From Aedoeadaptatus ivorii (lineage in GTDB: Bacteria; Bacillota; Clostridia; Tissierellales; Peptoniphilaceae): a stretch of DNA of 64,000 nt. The DNA lies in contig NZ_LR134523.1 of assembly GCF_900638585.1 (NCBI RefSeq), positions 248,001-312,000 on the forward strand, written 5' to 3'. Both the position numbers and the translations under genes were made by a program. Positions 26,355 to 37,950 of the stretch are shown piece by piece (the stretch's first letter is position 1; each line of letters opens with the position of its first letter). The notes beneath the pieces are model-generated. The model saw nothing but the letters and a program-made list of their open reading frames with translations, made no database searches and was not told the origin of the DNA.

Positions 26355-26558
26355 GAAAACCCCCACTGCGCAAGTGGGGGCATAACCGATACTTTCTATT
26401 GAGTTTCAGCACTTTACAACGTAACGTGAGGTAGCTGCATTATGTCTTTCCTTGGCGAAAAGACCTGTTCGACCCGTTGGCGTCTCTCGACATTTCCGGG
26501 CAGCAGCGTGTATTTGTAAAGGAGCCTCCCTTAATAACTGTATGATATTCATTTTTAC
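26355..26558 (-). promoter_or_regulatory. M-box (ykoK) magnesium riboswitch
   Basis: Read on the minus strand, the leader contains the conserved M-box pieces in order: GGGAGGCTCCTTTACAAATA, CGCTGCTGCCCGGAAATGTC, GAGACGCCAACGGGTCGA, AATGCAGCTACCTCACG and GTAAAGTGCTGAAACTC. A terminator hairpin follows (CCCCCACTTGCGCAGTGGGGG plus T4, positions 26355-26381, trimmed here to its arms CCCCCACT and AGTGGGGG). Mg2+ binding should favour termination, so mgtE is made when Mg2+ is scarce. The remaining 120 bp to the mgtE start hold no further element that I can recognise. Confidence 0.93.
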
Positions 26559-31246: not shown

Positions 31247-32428
31247 CTATCGACAGAAGGCGGTGGCGCCGACGAGGATGCCGACGTTTTTTGCCCCCGG
31301 CTCTTCGCGCATTTCCTCTCCCGCGTAGAGTTGTACGTTCACGGTAGAGTAGAGGGGCGACAGCATGTTCTCCCGGTGTCCGGGGCTCTTCCACCAGGCG
31401 TTAAAGCTGTGGTGGGCGAGATACACGGGATCGGTCATGATCTGCCGCGTATTCTCGTCCATTTCTTTTTTGAGGGGCACCTGAATCAGGTTTTCGCCCA
31501 CAAAGTAGCGGGGATTCAGCACGGGCAGGTAGGTGTAGGCGGTGTAGTAGGGCGTGCCGTCGGGACGCACGTGGCGATTGCCGCGGATCCGCATATTGCC
31601 GTAGAGGGCGAGTTCCTTTGCCCGCACATACGCGCCCTGCTGCAAATCCACTGTGAGGCGGAGCGGCTTTTGTCCCGCCGAGGCGCGGGCGTCGTTGATG
31701 AGTTTCAGCAGTTCCTTCTGGTACACGCGGTGGTCGAAGGTGGAGCGGGTGTTAAAGCTGTCTTTGTAGTCGCTGAAGCCCGGCGCCTTTTCTTTTTCCG
31801 GCGGCACGACGAGGGTCGCAAAGCCCTCTTCGTCGGCCATGGCGTCGTAGAGCATGACGAACACATCGCGGCGGAGTGCCGGCGCATTGCCCGCCACATC
31901 CTCGGGGGCGAGACCCAGTTCCCGCGCCCGGTGCATCCACCCGTCGGGCCAAGGTTCGGACGGATCGGGGTAGCGCGCCTCTTTGTCGTCGAGGACGACG
32001 AGGATTTTTGCCACCTCGCCATAGCTCGCTTTGCGATCGGGCTGAAATTTGCCGTCTGCGTAGCCATTCAGTACCGGGGCGGGCCGCTTTGCATTGGCGC
32101 CTTCAAGGGCGGCGATATATCCCTTCGCCCAGTGGGCATCCGCCACGTCGGGGAAGGGGGAGGGGAGCGACTTGGCGGCATCGGCGCTGTCTTTCAAACC
32201 CATGGCGAGCACGATCAGTTTGCTGAGCTCCGCCCGGCTTACGGCGCGGTCGAGCCCTAAGTCGTCGTCTCCGTAGCCGCGCACGATGTTTTTTTCCTGC
32301 AAAATGCGGATCTTTTGCGCTTCGGGGGCGGCGTCCGATTCTGCCGCAAAGGCGCCCGAAGCACAAGAGAAGAGCATCCCCGCGGCGAGGGCCGCCGCGG
32401 CAAGGCCGGATTTGAAAGATGATAACAT
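31247..32428 (-). CDS. SLH and CAP (SCP/PR-1) domain secreted protein
   Basis: A 393-residue exported protein. A signal peptide (about 1-29, ending GAFAAES) is followed by SLH-like repeats (about 35-200: DRAVSRAELSKLIVLAMGL, FPDVADAHWAKGYIAAL, LNGYADGKFQPDRKASYGEV). A CAP domain follows from about residue 235 to the end, with LLKLINDARASAGQKPL, VGENLIQ, HHSFNAWWKSPGHRENML and the final NVGILVGA. CAP proteins are secreted and occur widely in Firmicutes; the activity here is unknown. ATG follows AGGAGGTAGCT, and TATAAT (minus, 32471-32476) is the likely -10. Confidence 0.88.
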   Translation of the reverse strand: MLSSFKSGLAAAALAAGMLFSCASGAFAAESDAAPEAQKIRILQEKNIVRGYGDDDLGLDRAVSRAELSKLIVLAMGLKDSADAAKSLPSPFPDVADAHWAKGYIAALEGANAKRPAPVLNGYADGKFQPDRKASYGEVAKILVVLDDKEARYPDPSEPWPDGWMHRARELGLAPEDVAGNAPALRRDVFVMLYDAMADEEGFATLVVPPEKEKAPGFSDYKDSFNTRSTFDHRVYQKELLKLINDARASAGQKPLRLTVDLQQGAYVRAKELALYGNMRIRGNRHVRPDGTPYYTAYTYLPVLNPRYFVGENLIQVPLKKEMDENTRQIMTDPVYLAHHSFNAWWKSPGHRENMLSPLYSTVNVQLYAGEEMREEPGAKNVGILVGATAFCR

Positions 32429-33807: not shown

Positions 33808-33850
33808 CACAAAAAGAGACGAGCCATTTTTTTGGCTCGTCTCTTTCTTT
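33808..33850. terminator. Bidirectional terminator, MFS / sortase
   Basis: AAAAGAGACGAGCC and its complement around a T-rich loop, flanked by A and T runs; it lies between two convergent genes. Confidence 0.88.
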
Positions 33851-33859
33851 TGCCTTCGA

Positions 33860-34753
33860 TTATGATTCCGTGCGCACCGCGTGGATCACCATGCGGTCGT
33901 CCCGGTCGGAACAGGTGGAGAGGGTGAGTATTTTTCCGTTTCGCGGCATCGTGTAGGGAAGCAGATTCTCCGCGTCGATCCGCGAAAGGAAGCGCGCCTT
34001 GTCTTCGCCGCTATACTGCGGCTTGCGGTAGTCCGCATAGGCGGAGACGTCGTAGGCCGCCACCACCCGATACGCCATTTGCCCGCGGGGCGTATCGACA
34101 TAGATCAGCGGGTGCGCGGCGCGAAATTCTTCGTCGCCATACTGCACCAACTCGTGGAACACGTGGCCGCTGCGGACATTGTGCCCGTAGAGCACCGTGT
34201 TATAGTCCGAAAAATCCGCCGCGTCTCGCGCGTCCATAAACACCGCGCCGAAGGGGTGGTACTCGCCCTTGTAGTTGTGGTCCAGGTAAAAGGCATTGTC
34301 CTCGCCCTGCACCACCGGAAAGTCCACCGCCGTGCCCGGCACGCGAATGCGGCCCACCACATCGGGGTAGCGGTCTTTTAGGGAGCGGATGGCATTTTTA
34401 GAAGAAGCGGGCGCCGCCTCTGTGCGCGCTTTCTCTGCGGCGGGGGCGGGCGCTTCCTCCCGTGCCGCTTCCCGTGTCTCGGACGCGGGTGCCGCCTCTT
34501 CCGGCTTTGCCTCGGCAGACTTGGCGGGGAGAGGAAGGGCGGGCGTCTCTTCCTTTGCCGCTGGCTCTGCGGGATTCTCGGGCGGGGTAGCGGCAGGCGA
34601 AGCGGCCTCCGCCCTTTCCATCGCCTGCACAAATTCCGCCTGATCCGCCTGAAAGCTTTGGTTGGAATGGTAATAATCGAAGATCTTATAGGCCGAGAAT
34701 AGAATACACAGGACCAACGCCAATTCTACGGCGCGTATCAGATATTTTTTCAT
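33860..34753 (-). CDS. srtB: Class B sortase
   Basis: A 297-residue cell-wall transpeptidase. An N-terminal membrane segment (about 8-25) is followed by an unusually long A/E/P-rich linker (about 45-115), then the class B catalytic domain. The catalytic His is in LYGHNVRSGHVFH, the Cys in LTLSTCSDRDDRMVIHAV and the Arg just after it (RMVIHA). FYLDHNYKGEYHPFG is also characteristic of SrtB. It lies 34 bp downstream of a surface-protein gene on the same strand, its probable substrate. SrtB enzymes recognise NPQTN-like signals; the neighbour ends in an APQTF signal. Confidence 0.92.
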   Translation of the reverse strand: MKKYLIRAVELALVLCILFSAYKIFDYYHSNQSFQADQAEFVQAMERAEAASPAATPPENPAEPAAKEETPALPLPAKSAEAKPEEAAPASETREAAREEAPAPAAEKARTEAAPASSKNAIRSLKDRYPDVVGRIRVPGTAVDFPVVQGEDNAFYLDHNYKGEYHPFGAVFMDARDAADFSDYNTVLYGHNVRSGHVFHELVQYGDEEFRAAHPLIYVDTPRGQMAYRVVAAYDVSAYADYRKPQYSGEDKARFLSRIDAENLLPYTMPRNGKILTLSTCSDRDDRMVIHAVRTES

Positions 34754-34843
34754 GGACGGTCCTTTCTATAACCGGCAAATATCGTGCTTATTTCTTTCTG
34801 CGCTTGGATTCGAAGAAACCGAGAATCGCAGATGCCAAAACGC

Positions 34844-36670
34844 TCAGCCGAAGTAGCCGCTTACACCGGCATCGAAGGTTTGGGGCGCCTTGTCGGCGTC
34901 GTCCTTCGCCTTGGTTTCGACCTTCTTCGTCGTATCGCCCTTGTCGGATTTCTTTACCACGCCGGTCTTTTCGGGGGCGTAGGGTTTGTCCGTAGAGGGC
35001 TTGTCTTTGGGTTGCTTTTCGGGAGCAGTGGGTTCACCCGGCTTATTGGGCGTGGGTTCACTCGGCTTGTTGGGGGTGGGATCTACCGGTCCGCCAGGAG
35101 TGCCGGGGTTCCAGGGCTTGCCGGGCGTCGGGTCGGACGGCGTTCCCGGGGTCGGATCGGACGGACCTTCCGGCGTGGTCGTCTTCGTGTCTTTCTTGTA
35201 GACATAAGTGACCTTGAGTTCTTTTTTGGGAACAAAGTTGTCCTTCACTTCGCTGCCGTCGATGGTCTTCGTGATTTCATCAGACTTTTCAATTCGTTCG
35301 GGAACGAGTTCAAAGTCTTCTTTAGGATTCTCTTCAGTACCGTTAGGTTTGGCAGCGGTAGTAAACTGTTCGTCTTTTGTACCTTCTGTTTTCGGAATGG
35401 TGATGGTATTGGTATTTACCAACTTTCCGTCCTTGTCATATTCATAGTATTCATGAATTTCAGTAAAGGAACCTCTTTCTTCCATGGGATCTTCGGAAGT
35501 GATATCTTTTCTATAGACATAGGTAACTTCAAGATCTTCGTTCGGGATAAAGTGGATGTCTTTTGGTTCTCCATCCAATTCGTCGGTAATCTTATCAGAC
35601 TTTTTGATCTCTTCTTTTACTAGGGTAAATCCTTCTTTTTTGTTATCATCGGTCCCATCGGGCTTGGCAGAAGTGGTAAAAGTTTCTTCCTCTGTACCTT
35701 CGACCTTGTCGAGGTGGATGTTTGTGGTTTGATCTTCTTGCTTTTCACCATCTTTGTATACTTCGTAAATGTGGTGTTCAGTGAAAGAACCCTTTTCTTC
35801 CACGGGATCTTCGGAAGTGATGTCTTTTCTATAGACATAGGTAACTTCAAGATCTTCGTTCGGGATAAAGTGGATGTCTTTCGGTTCTCCATCCAATTCG
35901 TCGGTAATCTTATCAGACTTTTTGATCTCTTCTTTTACTAGGGTAAATCCTTCTTTTTTGTTATCATCGGTCCCGTCGGGCTTGGCAGAAGTGGTAAAAT
36001 TTCCGTCGTTGCCGTAGAATTTAGCGGCGGAATATAGATTTATATTCTCTTTTTTGGGATCGACTTTAGAGACGACTTTAATGACATAGGGATTGTCAAT
36101 GGTCTTTCTATTAAAATTCACTCTGGCCTTGCCGGTTTGATTGTTAAAACCCACCTCACTAGCGGTATCGATCTTGTCATCGGTGAGCCAGTCTCCGTAG
36201 ACGGCATGGGGCATAACGGTATCTTTATCGAGTTTGTATACGGTTACCTTGGTGTTGTCATTGGTGAAGAATACGTTGCTGCGGTAGCCGGTAACTGTTT
36301 CTGCCTCGTTTTCATCGTTTCCATTGTGAAGAATAACGCCGACAGATAGTTGAAGATCGTTTTCCGAAGAATAGTTTACATCTTTAGAGTTGGGGTTAAT
36401 ATAGTAGATTTGGGTAAATTCGCCGGTTTCCGGATTCCATTCGGTGAATTCACTCTTTCCCTCTAAGCCTTCATGATTATAAGGTTCACCATAATCCACA
36501 TTTAAGGTAATGGAATCAGTGGTCTCGCCCATATCAACAGTAAAAGTTTGCTCTTGACTGTTTTGGATCTTCTCTTCCCGGTCAAAAGCGACGTGTTCGG
36601 CGCGTGCCTTAGCGTAGCCTCTTCCATTGATGGCATCGGTAAAAGTATAGACGATTGTGTTTTTATCCAC
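34844..36670 (-). CDS. Adhesin, 3' open frame (608 residues)
   Basis: The largest open piece of the broken adhesin. The nominal start is a GTG (36670) inside the Ig-like segment, without a ribosome site, so it is probably not a true start. The frame holds the SdrD-like or collagen-adhesin-like beta domain, two near-identical repeats and a third diverged repeat (each with FTTSAKPDGTDDNKKEGF or FTTAAKPNGTEENPKEDF and VTYVYRKD). A Pro/Thr/Lys-rich stalk follows, then APQTFDAGVSGYFG, where it stops before the membrane anchor. As read, the product could not be sorted to the wall. Confidence 0.6.
   Translation of the reverse strand: MDKNTIVYTFTDAINGRGYAKARAEHVAFDREEKIQNSQEQTFTVDMGETTDSITLNVDYGEPYNHEGLEGKSEFTEWNPETGEFTQIYYINPNSKDVNYSSENDLQLSVGVILHNGNDENEAETVTGYRSNVFFTNDNTKVTVYKLDKDTVMPHAVYGDWLTDDKIDTASEVGFNNQTGKARVNFNRKTIDNPYVIKVVSKVDPKKENINLYSAAKFYGNDGNFTTSAKPDGTDDNKKEGFTLVKEEIKKSDKITDELDGEPKDIHFIPNEDLEVTYVYRKDITSEDPVEEKGSFTEHHIYEVYKDGEKQEDQTTNIHLDKVEGTEEETFTTSAKPDGTDDNKKEGFTLVKEEIKKSDKITDELDGEPKDIHFIPNEDLEVTYVYRKDITSEDPMEERGSFTEIHEYYEYDKDGKLVNTNTITIPKTEGTKDEQFTTAAKPNGTEENPKEDFELVPERIEKSDEITKTIDGSEVKDNFVPKKELKVTYVYKKDTKTTTPEGPSDPTPGTPSDPTPGKPWNPGTPGGPVDPTPNKPSEPTPNKPGEPTAPEKQPKDKPSTDKPYAPEKTGVVKKSDKGDTTKKVETKAKDDADKAPQTFDAGVSGYFG
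35481..35999 (-). repeat. Near-identical 318-bp-period repeat inside the adhesin
   Basis: Core copies of 201 bp at 35481-35681 and 35799-35999 differ at only a few bases and are in frame (106 codons per period). The third, diverged repeat lies nearer the C-terminus. Such repeats allow length change by recombination. Confidence 0.85.
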
Positions 36671-36777
36671 GTCATACTTTCCAGTTGCAATGACGGTATC
36701 GCCGAATGTGATGTCTAAAAGATCGGTGGGTACCGGCTCGAGTCCCTTTAATCCGAAGTTATCGGAGTGGGTAATGG

Positions 36778-37377
36778 TTACGGTGTCTCCGTCCCGGGTG
36801 TCCTTCGGAGTGACAAAGGAAATTCAAAGGAGAGGGCTTCGCCACCGGCTACGTCTAGCGTGCCTTCAGTATCCTTTGTTTCCGTCTCGCGAATCTTTAC
36901 CACGGGGTTAATTAGTTCGTTGGTAATATCCTTAGCATCTCTTGTAACTTCTTCGGCCAGTGTGGAGGGATCGACTTCGACGGGTGCGATTTCGAGCTTT
37001 TCGGGTTGCAGGGCCTCTGCTTTGAGGAGGGCGTCTTTTTCTTCTTGGGTTCGATCGGCGGGGTCTTTTGCCAAGGCGGCGGCGAGGCGTTCGTCGTTCG
37101 CGTCGGCTTCTTTGGCCTCGGCGGCGGGCGCTTTTTCTTCTGCGGGCTTTGTGTCGGCCTCTTCGATTTCTTCGGGCGCTACCGCTTTGGCGGGCGCTTC
37201 TTGTGCCGGTGCCGATTGGGGCTTGGCGCTTACGGTTTCGTAGGCGGTCTCTGCCACGGATTGGGTGGCAACGAGTGCTGCCACGTCTTCTGCCTCTTGG
37301 GCGTGGACGGTGATTGGCGCCGCCAGTACGGTCATGATGAGAACGTTACGAATGGCGTTCTTTTTAAAGTTGTTCAT
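36778..37377 (-). CDS. Adhesin, 5' open frame (199 residues)
   Basis: The signal-peptide-bearing piece of the broken adhesin: MNNFKKNAIRNVLIMTVLAA begins the export signal (cut after about VHAQ). An Ala/Glu-rich stretch (about 27-115) and the start of the adhesin domain (LDVAGGEALSFEF) follow. After the frameshift it reads 15 unrelated residues to a stop. AAAGGAG precedes the ATG. If the shift is real, the cell secretes only this truncated peptide. Confidence 0.6.
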   Translation of the reverse strand: MNNFKKNAIRNVLIMTVLAAPITVHAQEAEDVAALVATQSVAETAYETVSAKPQSAPAQEAPAKAVAPEEIEEADTKPAEEKAPAAEAKEADANDERLAAALAKDPADRTQEEKDALLKAEALQPEKLEIAPVEVDPSTLAEEVTRDAKDITNELINPVVKIRETETKDTEGTLDVAGGEALSFEFPLSLRRTPGTETP

Positions 37378-37756: not shown

Positions 37757-37785
37757 TTGCCTTCGGTTTTGCGGATTGCTATACT
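37757..37785 (+). promoter_or_regulatory. Promoter of the btu operon
   Basis: TTGCCT (37757-37762), 17-bp spacer, TATACT (37780-37785), immediately before the cobalamin riboswitch. Confidence 0.7.
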
Positions 37786-37791
37786 ATTTAT

Positions 37792-37950
37792 GTAGGCTCC
37801 TTCGGGATAAAAGGGGAAGTCGCCGTTTGCGCACGGTCCCGCCACTGTATACGTCGAGAGGCCCGCTCACTTTACGGGAAGGGCGCTGCCTCGTTGGAGA
37901 CGGGAAGTCAGGATACCCGCCTACGGTAGGTTTTTCACGCGGTATGAAGA
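37792..37950 (+). promoter_or_regulatory. Cobalamin (B12) riboswitch
   Basis: The leader shows conserved cobalamin-aptamer pieces in order: GGCTCCTTCGGGATAAAAGG, GGGAAGTCGCC, the core GGTCCCGCCACTGTATAC, and GGGAAGTCAGGATACCCGCC. The B12-box-like stretch ends about 20 bp before the ribosome site of btuF. A short CCTA-cgg-TAGG hairpin with T5 follows, too weak to be sure of transcriptional termination, so control may be at translation. The genes downstream are a BtuFC-type uptake system, as expected. Confidence 0.9.

What the first reader, a model, noticed from the sequence alone, without database searches (positions are those of the whole stretch)
34788..37377. Sortase B substrate with two single-base deletions, one inside its sorting signal
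Restoring one base near 36822 and one near 34847 gives an 863-residue adhesin with signal peptide, Ig-like head, repeats, proline stalk, APQTFDAG motif, membrane segment (LSVLASAILGFF) and tail ESKRRKK. The 2590-bp span needs exactly two bases to be a whole number of codons. The second shift removes only the anchor, so an ON/OFF switch between wall-bound and secreted (or no) product is conceivable. The sites are short TTTCC and GGC runs, not long homopolymers, so slippage is not an obvious cause.
Basis: partly seen in the sequence, partly recalled or inferred. Interest (0 to 1): 0.6.

Follow-up and report, generated by a model that had tools for sequence, protein, structure and literature searches.

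The report
Broken adhesin beside its sortase
A bacterial surface 'sticky' protein gene carries two one-base frame breaks and most likely no longer makes a working product, although the enzyme gene next to it that would fasten the protein to the cell wall is intact; this looks like ordinary recent gene loss rather than a switch.

Summary
On the minus strand a 199-aa open frame with a signal peptide (37377-36778) changes frame near 36820 and again at 34847. Homology crosses both breaks: solved ClfA/Sdr N2N3 structures match both sides of the first, and relatives' anchors match both sides of the second, in abutting pieces in different frames. It is one disrupted gene for an MSCRAMM-like adhesin, in an operon with an intact class B sortase.

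The ON/OFF reading is not supported. The first break already ends the product inside the N2 domain, neither site is a repeat tract, and there is no phased slippery heptamer. Random consensus error is disfavoured, not excluded: 61 conserved genes (58 kb) of this genome showed no frameshift. The best reading is a recently inactivated pseudogene, leaving the sortase without its only detectable substrate. A family relative (G100) shows a later stage: a multiply broken substrate and no sortase.

The broader result is a sorting signal, [APN]P[KQ]T[FY]D[AP]G[IV], with F/Y where LPXTG-type signals have G. It accompanies 12 of 13 members of one SrtB clade and is absent from the other genomes tested, apart from the G100 relic.

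The parts
36778..37377 (-). 5' fragment of the adhesin gene: signal peptide, acidic/Ala-rich pro-region and start of the N2 domain; 199-aa ORF of which about the last 13 residues are out of frame
36815..36826 (-). first frame break (about 36820), inside the N2 domain
   Evidence: ClfA and Sdr N2N3 structures align on both sides; frame analysis and codon model
34847..36820 (-). main open frame: rest of N2, N3 (SdrG_C_C), three repeats, Pro-rich stalk, APQTFDAGVSGYFG signal; no start codon before 36670
35459..35689 (-). internal repeat copy (231 nt, 95% identical to 35777-36007)
35777..36007 (-). internal repeat copy
34844..34888 (-). sorting motif APQTFDAGVSGYFG running into an immediate TGA: second frame break at about 34847
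   Evidence: motif unique in the genome
34788..34847 (-). out-of-frame membrane segment and charged tail LSVLASAILGFFESKRRKK
   Evidence: 63% identical to the anchor of L139 over 19 residues, in another frame
33860..34753 (-). intact class B sortase, 297 aa, with the conserved YGHN, TLSTC and DDR active-site regions; 34 bp downstream of the adhesin
33813..33846 (.). 14-pair stem, terminator-like, between the sortase and the convergent MFS-type transporter gene
   Evidence: pattern match only

Best explanation
The span is a recently inactivated gene (pseudogene) of a secreted, cell-wall-anchored MSCRAMM-like adhesin, in an operon with the sortase that would anchor it. Two independent one-base changes broke it, the first inside the N2 ligand-binding subdomain and the second between the sorting motif and the membrane segment. 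As sequenced, the gene makes at most a short secreted fragment of about 199 aa without a head, stalk or anchor. The intact sortase then has no other detectable substrate in this genome. Shown here: the frame breaks, homology across both, the intact sortase, the single copy of the motif, and the low frameshift rate elsewhere. Inferred: that the changes are real in the cells and fixed, that the ancestral protein bound a host ligand by dock-lock-latch, and that this sortase processed it.
For: Frames and breaks. N2N3 homology across break 1. Family anchors across break 2. Sortase intact and adjacent. Signal found with one SrtB clade and present once in this genome. No frameshift in 61 conserved genes, 58 kb; the single flag falls in 23S rRNA. 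At a rate of 1 per 58 kb, or at the 95% upper bound of 3 per 58 kb, two breaks in 2.6 kb has probability about 0.001 or 0.008 (Poisson, by hand). Genome completeness 100%. Relative G100 shows advanced decay of the same pair: deletion, frameshift, nonsense codon, sortase gone. Precedent: S. aureus Newman fnbA/fnbB nonsense mutations give proteins that cannot be anchored (PMC3369899).
Against: No second isolate or read data could be examined, so both breaks could still be consensus errors. Only two lesions are present, with no in-frame stop, so decay is at most very recent. The error survey covers 58 kb of conserved genes, not low-complexity surface genes.
Confidence: 0.68

Rival explanations
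1. Both frame breaks are errors of the genome sequence; the strain carries an ordinary intact SrtB-anchored adhesin.
For: Both breaks go in the same direction (one base missing), the commonest error type of long-read consensus. There are only two lesions and no stop codon in 1.97 kb. The genome is one contig, so long reads are likely (inference).
Against: No frameshift in 58 kb of conserved genes of the same assembly. Twelve homopolymers of 5 or more lie in the gene, yet neither break is at one.
Confidence: 0.22
2. Reversible phase variation: the gene is caught in an OFF state and slippage restores it.
For: Surface adhesins are frequent targets of phase variation (general knowledge). The coding frames are otherwise intact.
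Against: No tract of 4 or more identical bases at the first site, and none that could explain the second. Two separate sites would both have to revert. The first break makes the second irrelevant.
Confidence: 0.05
3. Programmed -1 ribosomal frameshifting twice in one message.
For: Both shifts have the sense of a -1 slip.
Against: No X_XXY_YYZ heptamer in the right phase in either overlap window. Intact family substrates are continuous frames of 1626 to 2342 codons.
Confidence: 0.02
4. A secreted, anchor-less adhesin, selected by loss of the anchor.
For: Anchor-less truncated adhesins occur in S. aureus Newman (PMC3369899).
Against: The first break removes N2, N3, repeats and stalk as well, so no adhesin is secreted.
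Confidence: 0.03

Closest known systems
MSCRAMM adhesins of the ClfA / SdrG type (N2N3, PF10425)
   Same: Signal peptide, N-terminal pro-region, N2N3 head (ClfA E 8e-13 with both fragments), repeats, proline-rich stalk, C-terminal sorting signal
   Different: Repeats are not Ser-Asp repeats; the signal is APQTFDAG with a class B sortase next door rather than LPXTG/SrtA; the gene is broken twice; ligand unknown
Class B sortases (TIGR03064, (N/S/P)PXTG signals)
   Same: The sortase scores 148.8 bits, E 1.5e-43, just under the curated cut-off of 153.75; gene next to its substrate
   Different: Associated signals read [APN]P[KQ]T[FY]D[AP]G[IV], aromatic at the usual glycine position; substrates are large adhesins, not haem-uptake proteins
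S. aureus Newman fnbA/fnbB (truncated, non-anchored FnBPs)
   Same: Wall-anchored adhesin genes of a sequenced strain lost anchoring by small mutations
   Different: There nonsense codons release an otherwise produced protein; here the first break destroys the head
G5-repeat surface proteins with the same signal in family relatives (G005, G053, G119 and others)
   Same: Same type of sorting signal; several lie next to the same SrtB
   Different: Different head and repeats (G5 domains and a putative adhesin domain in G053, PF07501, PF20592); intact

Membership tests
MSCRAMM (N2N3 adhesin) | Two adjacent IgG-like subdomains N2 and N3 related to ClfA/SdrG | tested here: met
   PF10425 35.3 bits against cut-off 24.4; ClfA chain aligned over residues 8-318 of the query, both fragments
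MSCRAMM (N2N3 adhesin) | Sec signal peptide and C-terminal wall-sorting signal in one reading frame | tested here: not met
   Both sequences exist but in three different frames
MSCRAMM (N2N3 adhesin) | Binding of a host ligand by dock-lock-latch | not testable with these tools
   needs protein
Class B sortase | Sortase fold with His, Cys, Arg active site | tested here: met
   PF04203 55 bits; invariant H191, C281, R287 in the family alignment
Class B sortase | Match to the srtB model above its curated cut-off | tested here: inconclusive
   TIGR03064 148.8 bits against cut-off 153.75, E 1.5e-43
Class B sortase substrate | (N/S/P)PXTG-type motif, hydrophobic segment, charged tail | tested here: not met
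   APQTF instead of xPXTG, and the hydrophobic segment and tail are out of frame; the APQTFD form is conserved in relatives
Pseudogene | Disrupted frame against intact homologues on both sides | tested here: met
Pseudogene | Lesions confirmed in reads or other isolates | not testable with these tools
   no second isolate or reads held
Phase-variable contingency locus | Repeat tract, invertible element or other reversible site at the break | tested here: not met
   no homopolymer of 4 or more able to explain either break; no inverted repeat pairs in the gene

The most novel reading that the evidence does not exclude
One clade of class B sortases in the Peptoniphilaceae recognises its own sorting signal, [APN]P[KQ]T[FY]D[AP]G[IV], with an aromatic residue where almost all known sortase signals have glycine. 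Each such genome keeps one or few large adhesins for it; in this window the only one has been lost, leaving an orphan sortase.
Probability: 0.6. Interest if true: 0.45.

Novelty: new member of a known kind. Interest (0 to 1): 0.3.

Why it matters
The broken gene is an ordinary example of adhesin loss, useful mainly as a warning that this strain may lack its SrtB-anchored adhesin. The by-product matters more. A sortase clade and a shared non-glycine signal were linked by co-occurrence, gene adjacency and a tree. The signal is not covered by the Pfam and NCBIfam models tested here, so such surface proteins are probably missed by annotation, and a peptide assay can test the link directly.

Tried and rejected
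Codon-bias scan for frameshifts across the window and 12 sampled stretches: too noisy at 52% G+C, so replaced by homology. Plasmid records: no match. Adhesin homologues in 40 relatives: only weak repeat or domain matches, so no intact allele was found. Own-genome paralogue: none. Gram_pos_anchor PF00746 in the genome: nothing above the cut-off. Programmed frameshift and slippage: rejected. The L143 frameshift flag was a 23S rRNA shadow ORF. Literature for the signal strings: no paper in the held library. No structure prediction was run, because sequence matches to solved N2N3 structures were already clear.

Full report
WHAT IS THERE. On the minus strand of the window, a 199-aa ORF starts at 37377 with a signal peptide and a GGAG-type ribosome site and stops at 36778. 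The protein continues in a second frame that is open from 36823 to the TGA at 34846-34844 but has no start codon before 36670. The last 19 codons, LSVLASAILGFFESKRRKK, lie in a third frame, with their stop at 34790-34788. Both changes of frame have the same sense, equivalent to the loss of one base.

THE BREAKS ARE REAL RELATIVE TO HOMOLOGUES. For break 1, a query holding the end of the first frame and the start of the second, with X between them, matches solved N2N3 structures: ClfA E 8e-13, Bbp, SdrE, SdrG. The ClfA alignment covers query residues 8 to 318, so it includes sequence from both frames. The second frame alone matches at 1e-10 and passes the PF10425 cut-off. Break 1 therefore lies within the N2 subdomain. 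For break 2, the anchor of family relative L139 matches the window in two abutting pieces in different frames: residues 2-14 at 34885-34847 and residues 15-33 at 34847-34791. The two pieces share one base and leave no gap in the query, which fits the loss of a single base.

CONSEQUENCE. As sequenced, translation ends 13 codons after break 1. The head, repeats, stalk and anchor are not made with a signal peptide. Break 2 has no effect unless break 1 is bypassed. This removes the basis for the proposed anchored/secreted switch.

SWITCH OR RECODING. Neither break is at a homopolymer of 4 or more that could explain it, although 12 runs of 5 or more exist elsewhere in the gene. The slippery heptamers in the two overlap windows are all in the wrong phase. 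There are no inverted repeat pairs in the gene.

ERROR OR MUTATION. To estimate the error rate of the assembly, ORFs from sampled stretches of a same-genus genome (G005, plus G003) were compared with the window and 12 sampled stretches of this genome. Sixty-one genes (58 kb) matched, 56 of them over at least 80% of their length. One frame change was flagged, and that place is 23S rRNA, so no real gene was broken. If errors struck at 1 per 58 kb, or at the 95% upper bound of 3 per 58 kb, two in this 2.6-kb gene would have probability about 0.001 or 0.008 (Poisson, by hand). Random consensus error is disfavoured, not excluded, because no reads or second isolate could be examined.

AGE. The main frame has no internal stop in 658 codons. 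The two 231-nt repeat copies differ at ten codons: five changes are silent and five alter the protein, and all five protein changes lie at the ends. The 65 residues between them are identical and carry three silent changes, where about 20% of random changes would be silent. This fits past constraint and a recent loss, but the counts are small.

THE SORTASE. The gene 34 bp downstream (34753-33860) encodes an intact 297-aa sortase (PF04203 55 bits; TIGR03064 148.8 bits, just under the cut-off), with invariant H191, C281 and R287 in the family alignment. Three further sortase genes lie in a row at about 186-188 kb of the genome.

A SHARED SORTING SIGNAL. The APQTFDAG form is not a degraded LPXTG. 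Family relatives carry NPKTYDAGVAGY, APQTYDPGVAGY, APKTYDAGIDGY or PPKTFDPGIAGY, and in six of the seven other genomes found with the strict pattern an SrtB gene lies close by. Same-genus genomes G001, G002, G003 and G005, and G019, carry APQT[FY]DPG signals on large proteins located elsewhere in the genome. In the relatives tested with the looser pattern or positive with the strict one, the signal was found in 8 of 9 genomes with an SrtB at least 44% identical to this one, against 0 of 9 genomes with only distant SrtB or none (one-sided Fisher about 0.0002 by hand, not corrected for shared ancestry; G100, with a broken substrate and no SrtB, was found by its signal and is left out of this count). 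In a tree of 22 sortases the signal-bearing genomes fall in one clade of 13 (support 90/90), 12 of which have the signal; G007 is the exception, and the substrate seen in G005 is absent from the corresponding stretch of G007. No Pfam or NCBIfam model recognised these signals, and no paper in the held library contains any of five signal strings searched. A recent paper gives class B signals as (N/S/P)PXTG (PMC13257024).

ORPHAN SORTASE AND A LATER STAGE. This genome has no second copy of the signal. In relative G100 the corresponding G5-type substrate has lost much of its head, is frameshifted, and has a nonsense codon 88 codons before its end; no class B sortase was found in that genome. Loss of the substrate and then of the sortase is a plausible order; this is inference from two genomes.

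PLACE. In four same-genus genomes the B12-transport genes right of the locus (37969 onward) are collinear, but the sortase-adhesin pair is not beside them, so the pair is a species-specific islet here. The family is Peptoniphilaceae: relatives G019 and G053 share contig lengths with Peptoniphilus obesi and Lagierella records. The genus name was not shown by any tool; Aedoeadaptatus is my guess from G+C and size only.

VERDICT. A real and correctly described observation, most likely ordinary recent pseudogenisation of a sortase-anchored adhesin. The sorting-signal clade is the more interesting by-product.

Noticed in passing
L162:7819-10161 (G100): Remnant of a large G5-type substrate with the same signal: large deletion, frameshift and nonsense codon, with no class B sortase left in that genome.
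   Followed up: yes
L196, L194, L195, L199, L198: Same-genus and family genomes carry large proteins ending in APQT[FY]DPG signals away from their SrtB gene; an apparently undescribed signal variant.
   Followed up: partly
window 37777-37938 (+): Cobalamin riboswitch in front of a B12-type ABC transporter operon (37969 onward), divergent from the adhesin.
   Followed up: no
window 26385-26545 (-): M-box magnesium riboswitch, 118 bits.
   Followed up: no
G000:C1 about 185.5-188.5 kb (L144:10627-13316): Three sortase genes in a row, resembling class C pilus sortases by place and C-terminal membrane segments.
   Followed up: no
window 31247-32428 (-): Secreted protein with SLH-like repeats and a YkwD-like C-terminal domain; a similar protein lies at L200:2283-3500.
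   Followed up: no
L200 (G007): G007 keeps the SrtB gene, but the substrate seen in sister genome G005 is missing from the corresponding stretch: possibly a second orphan sortase.
   Followed up: partly
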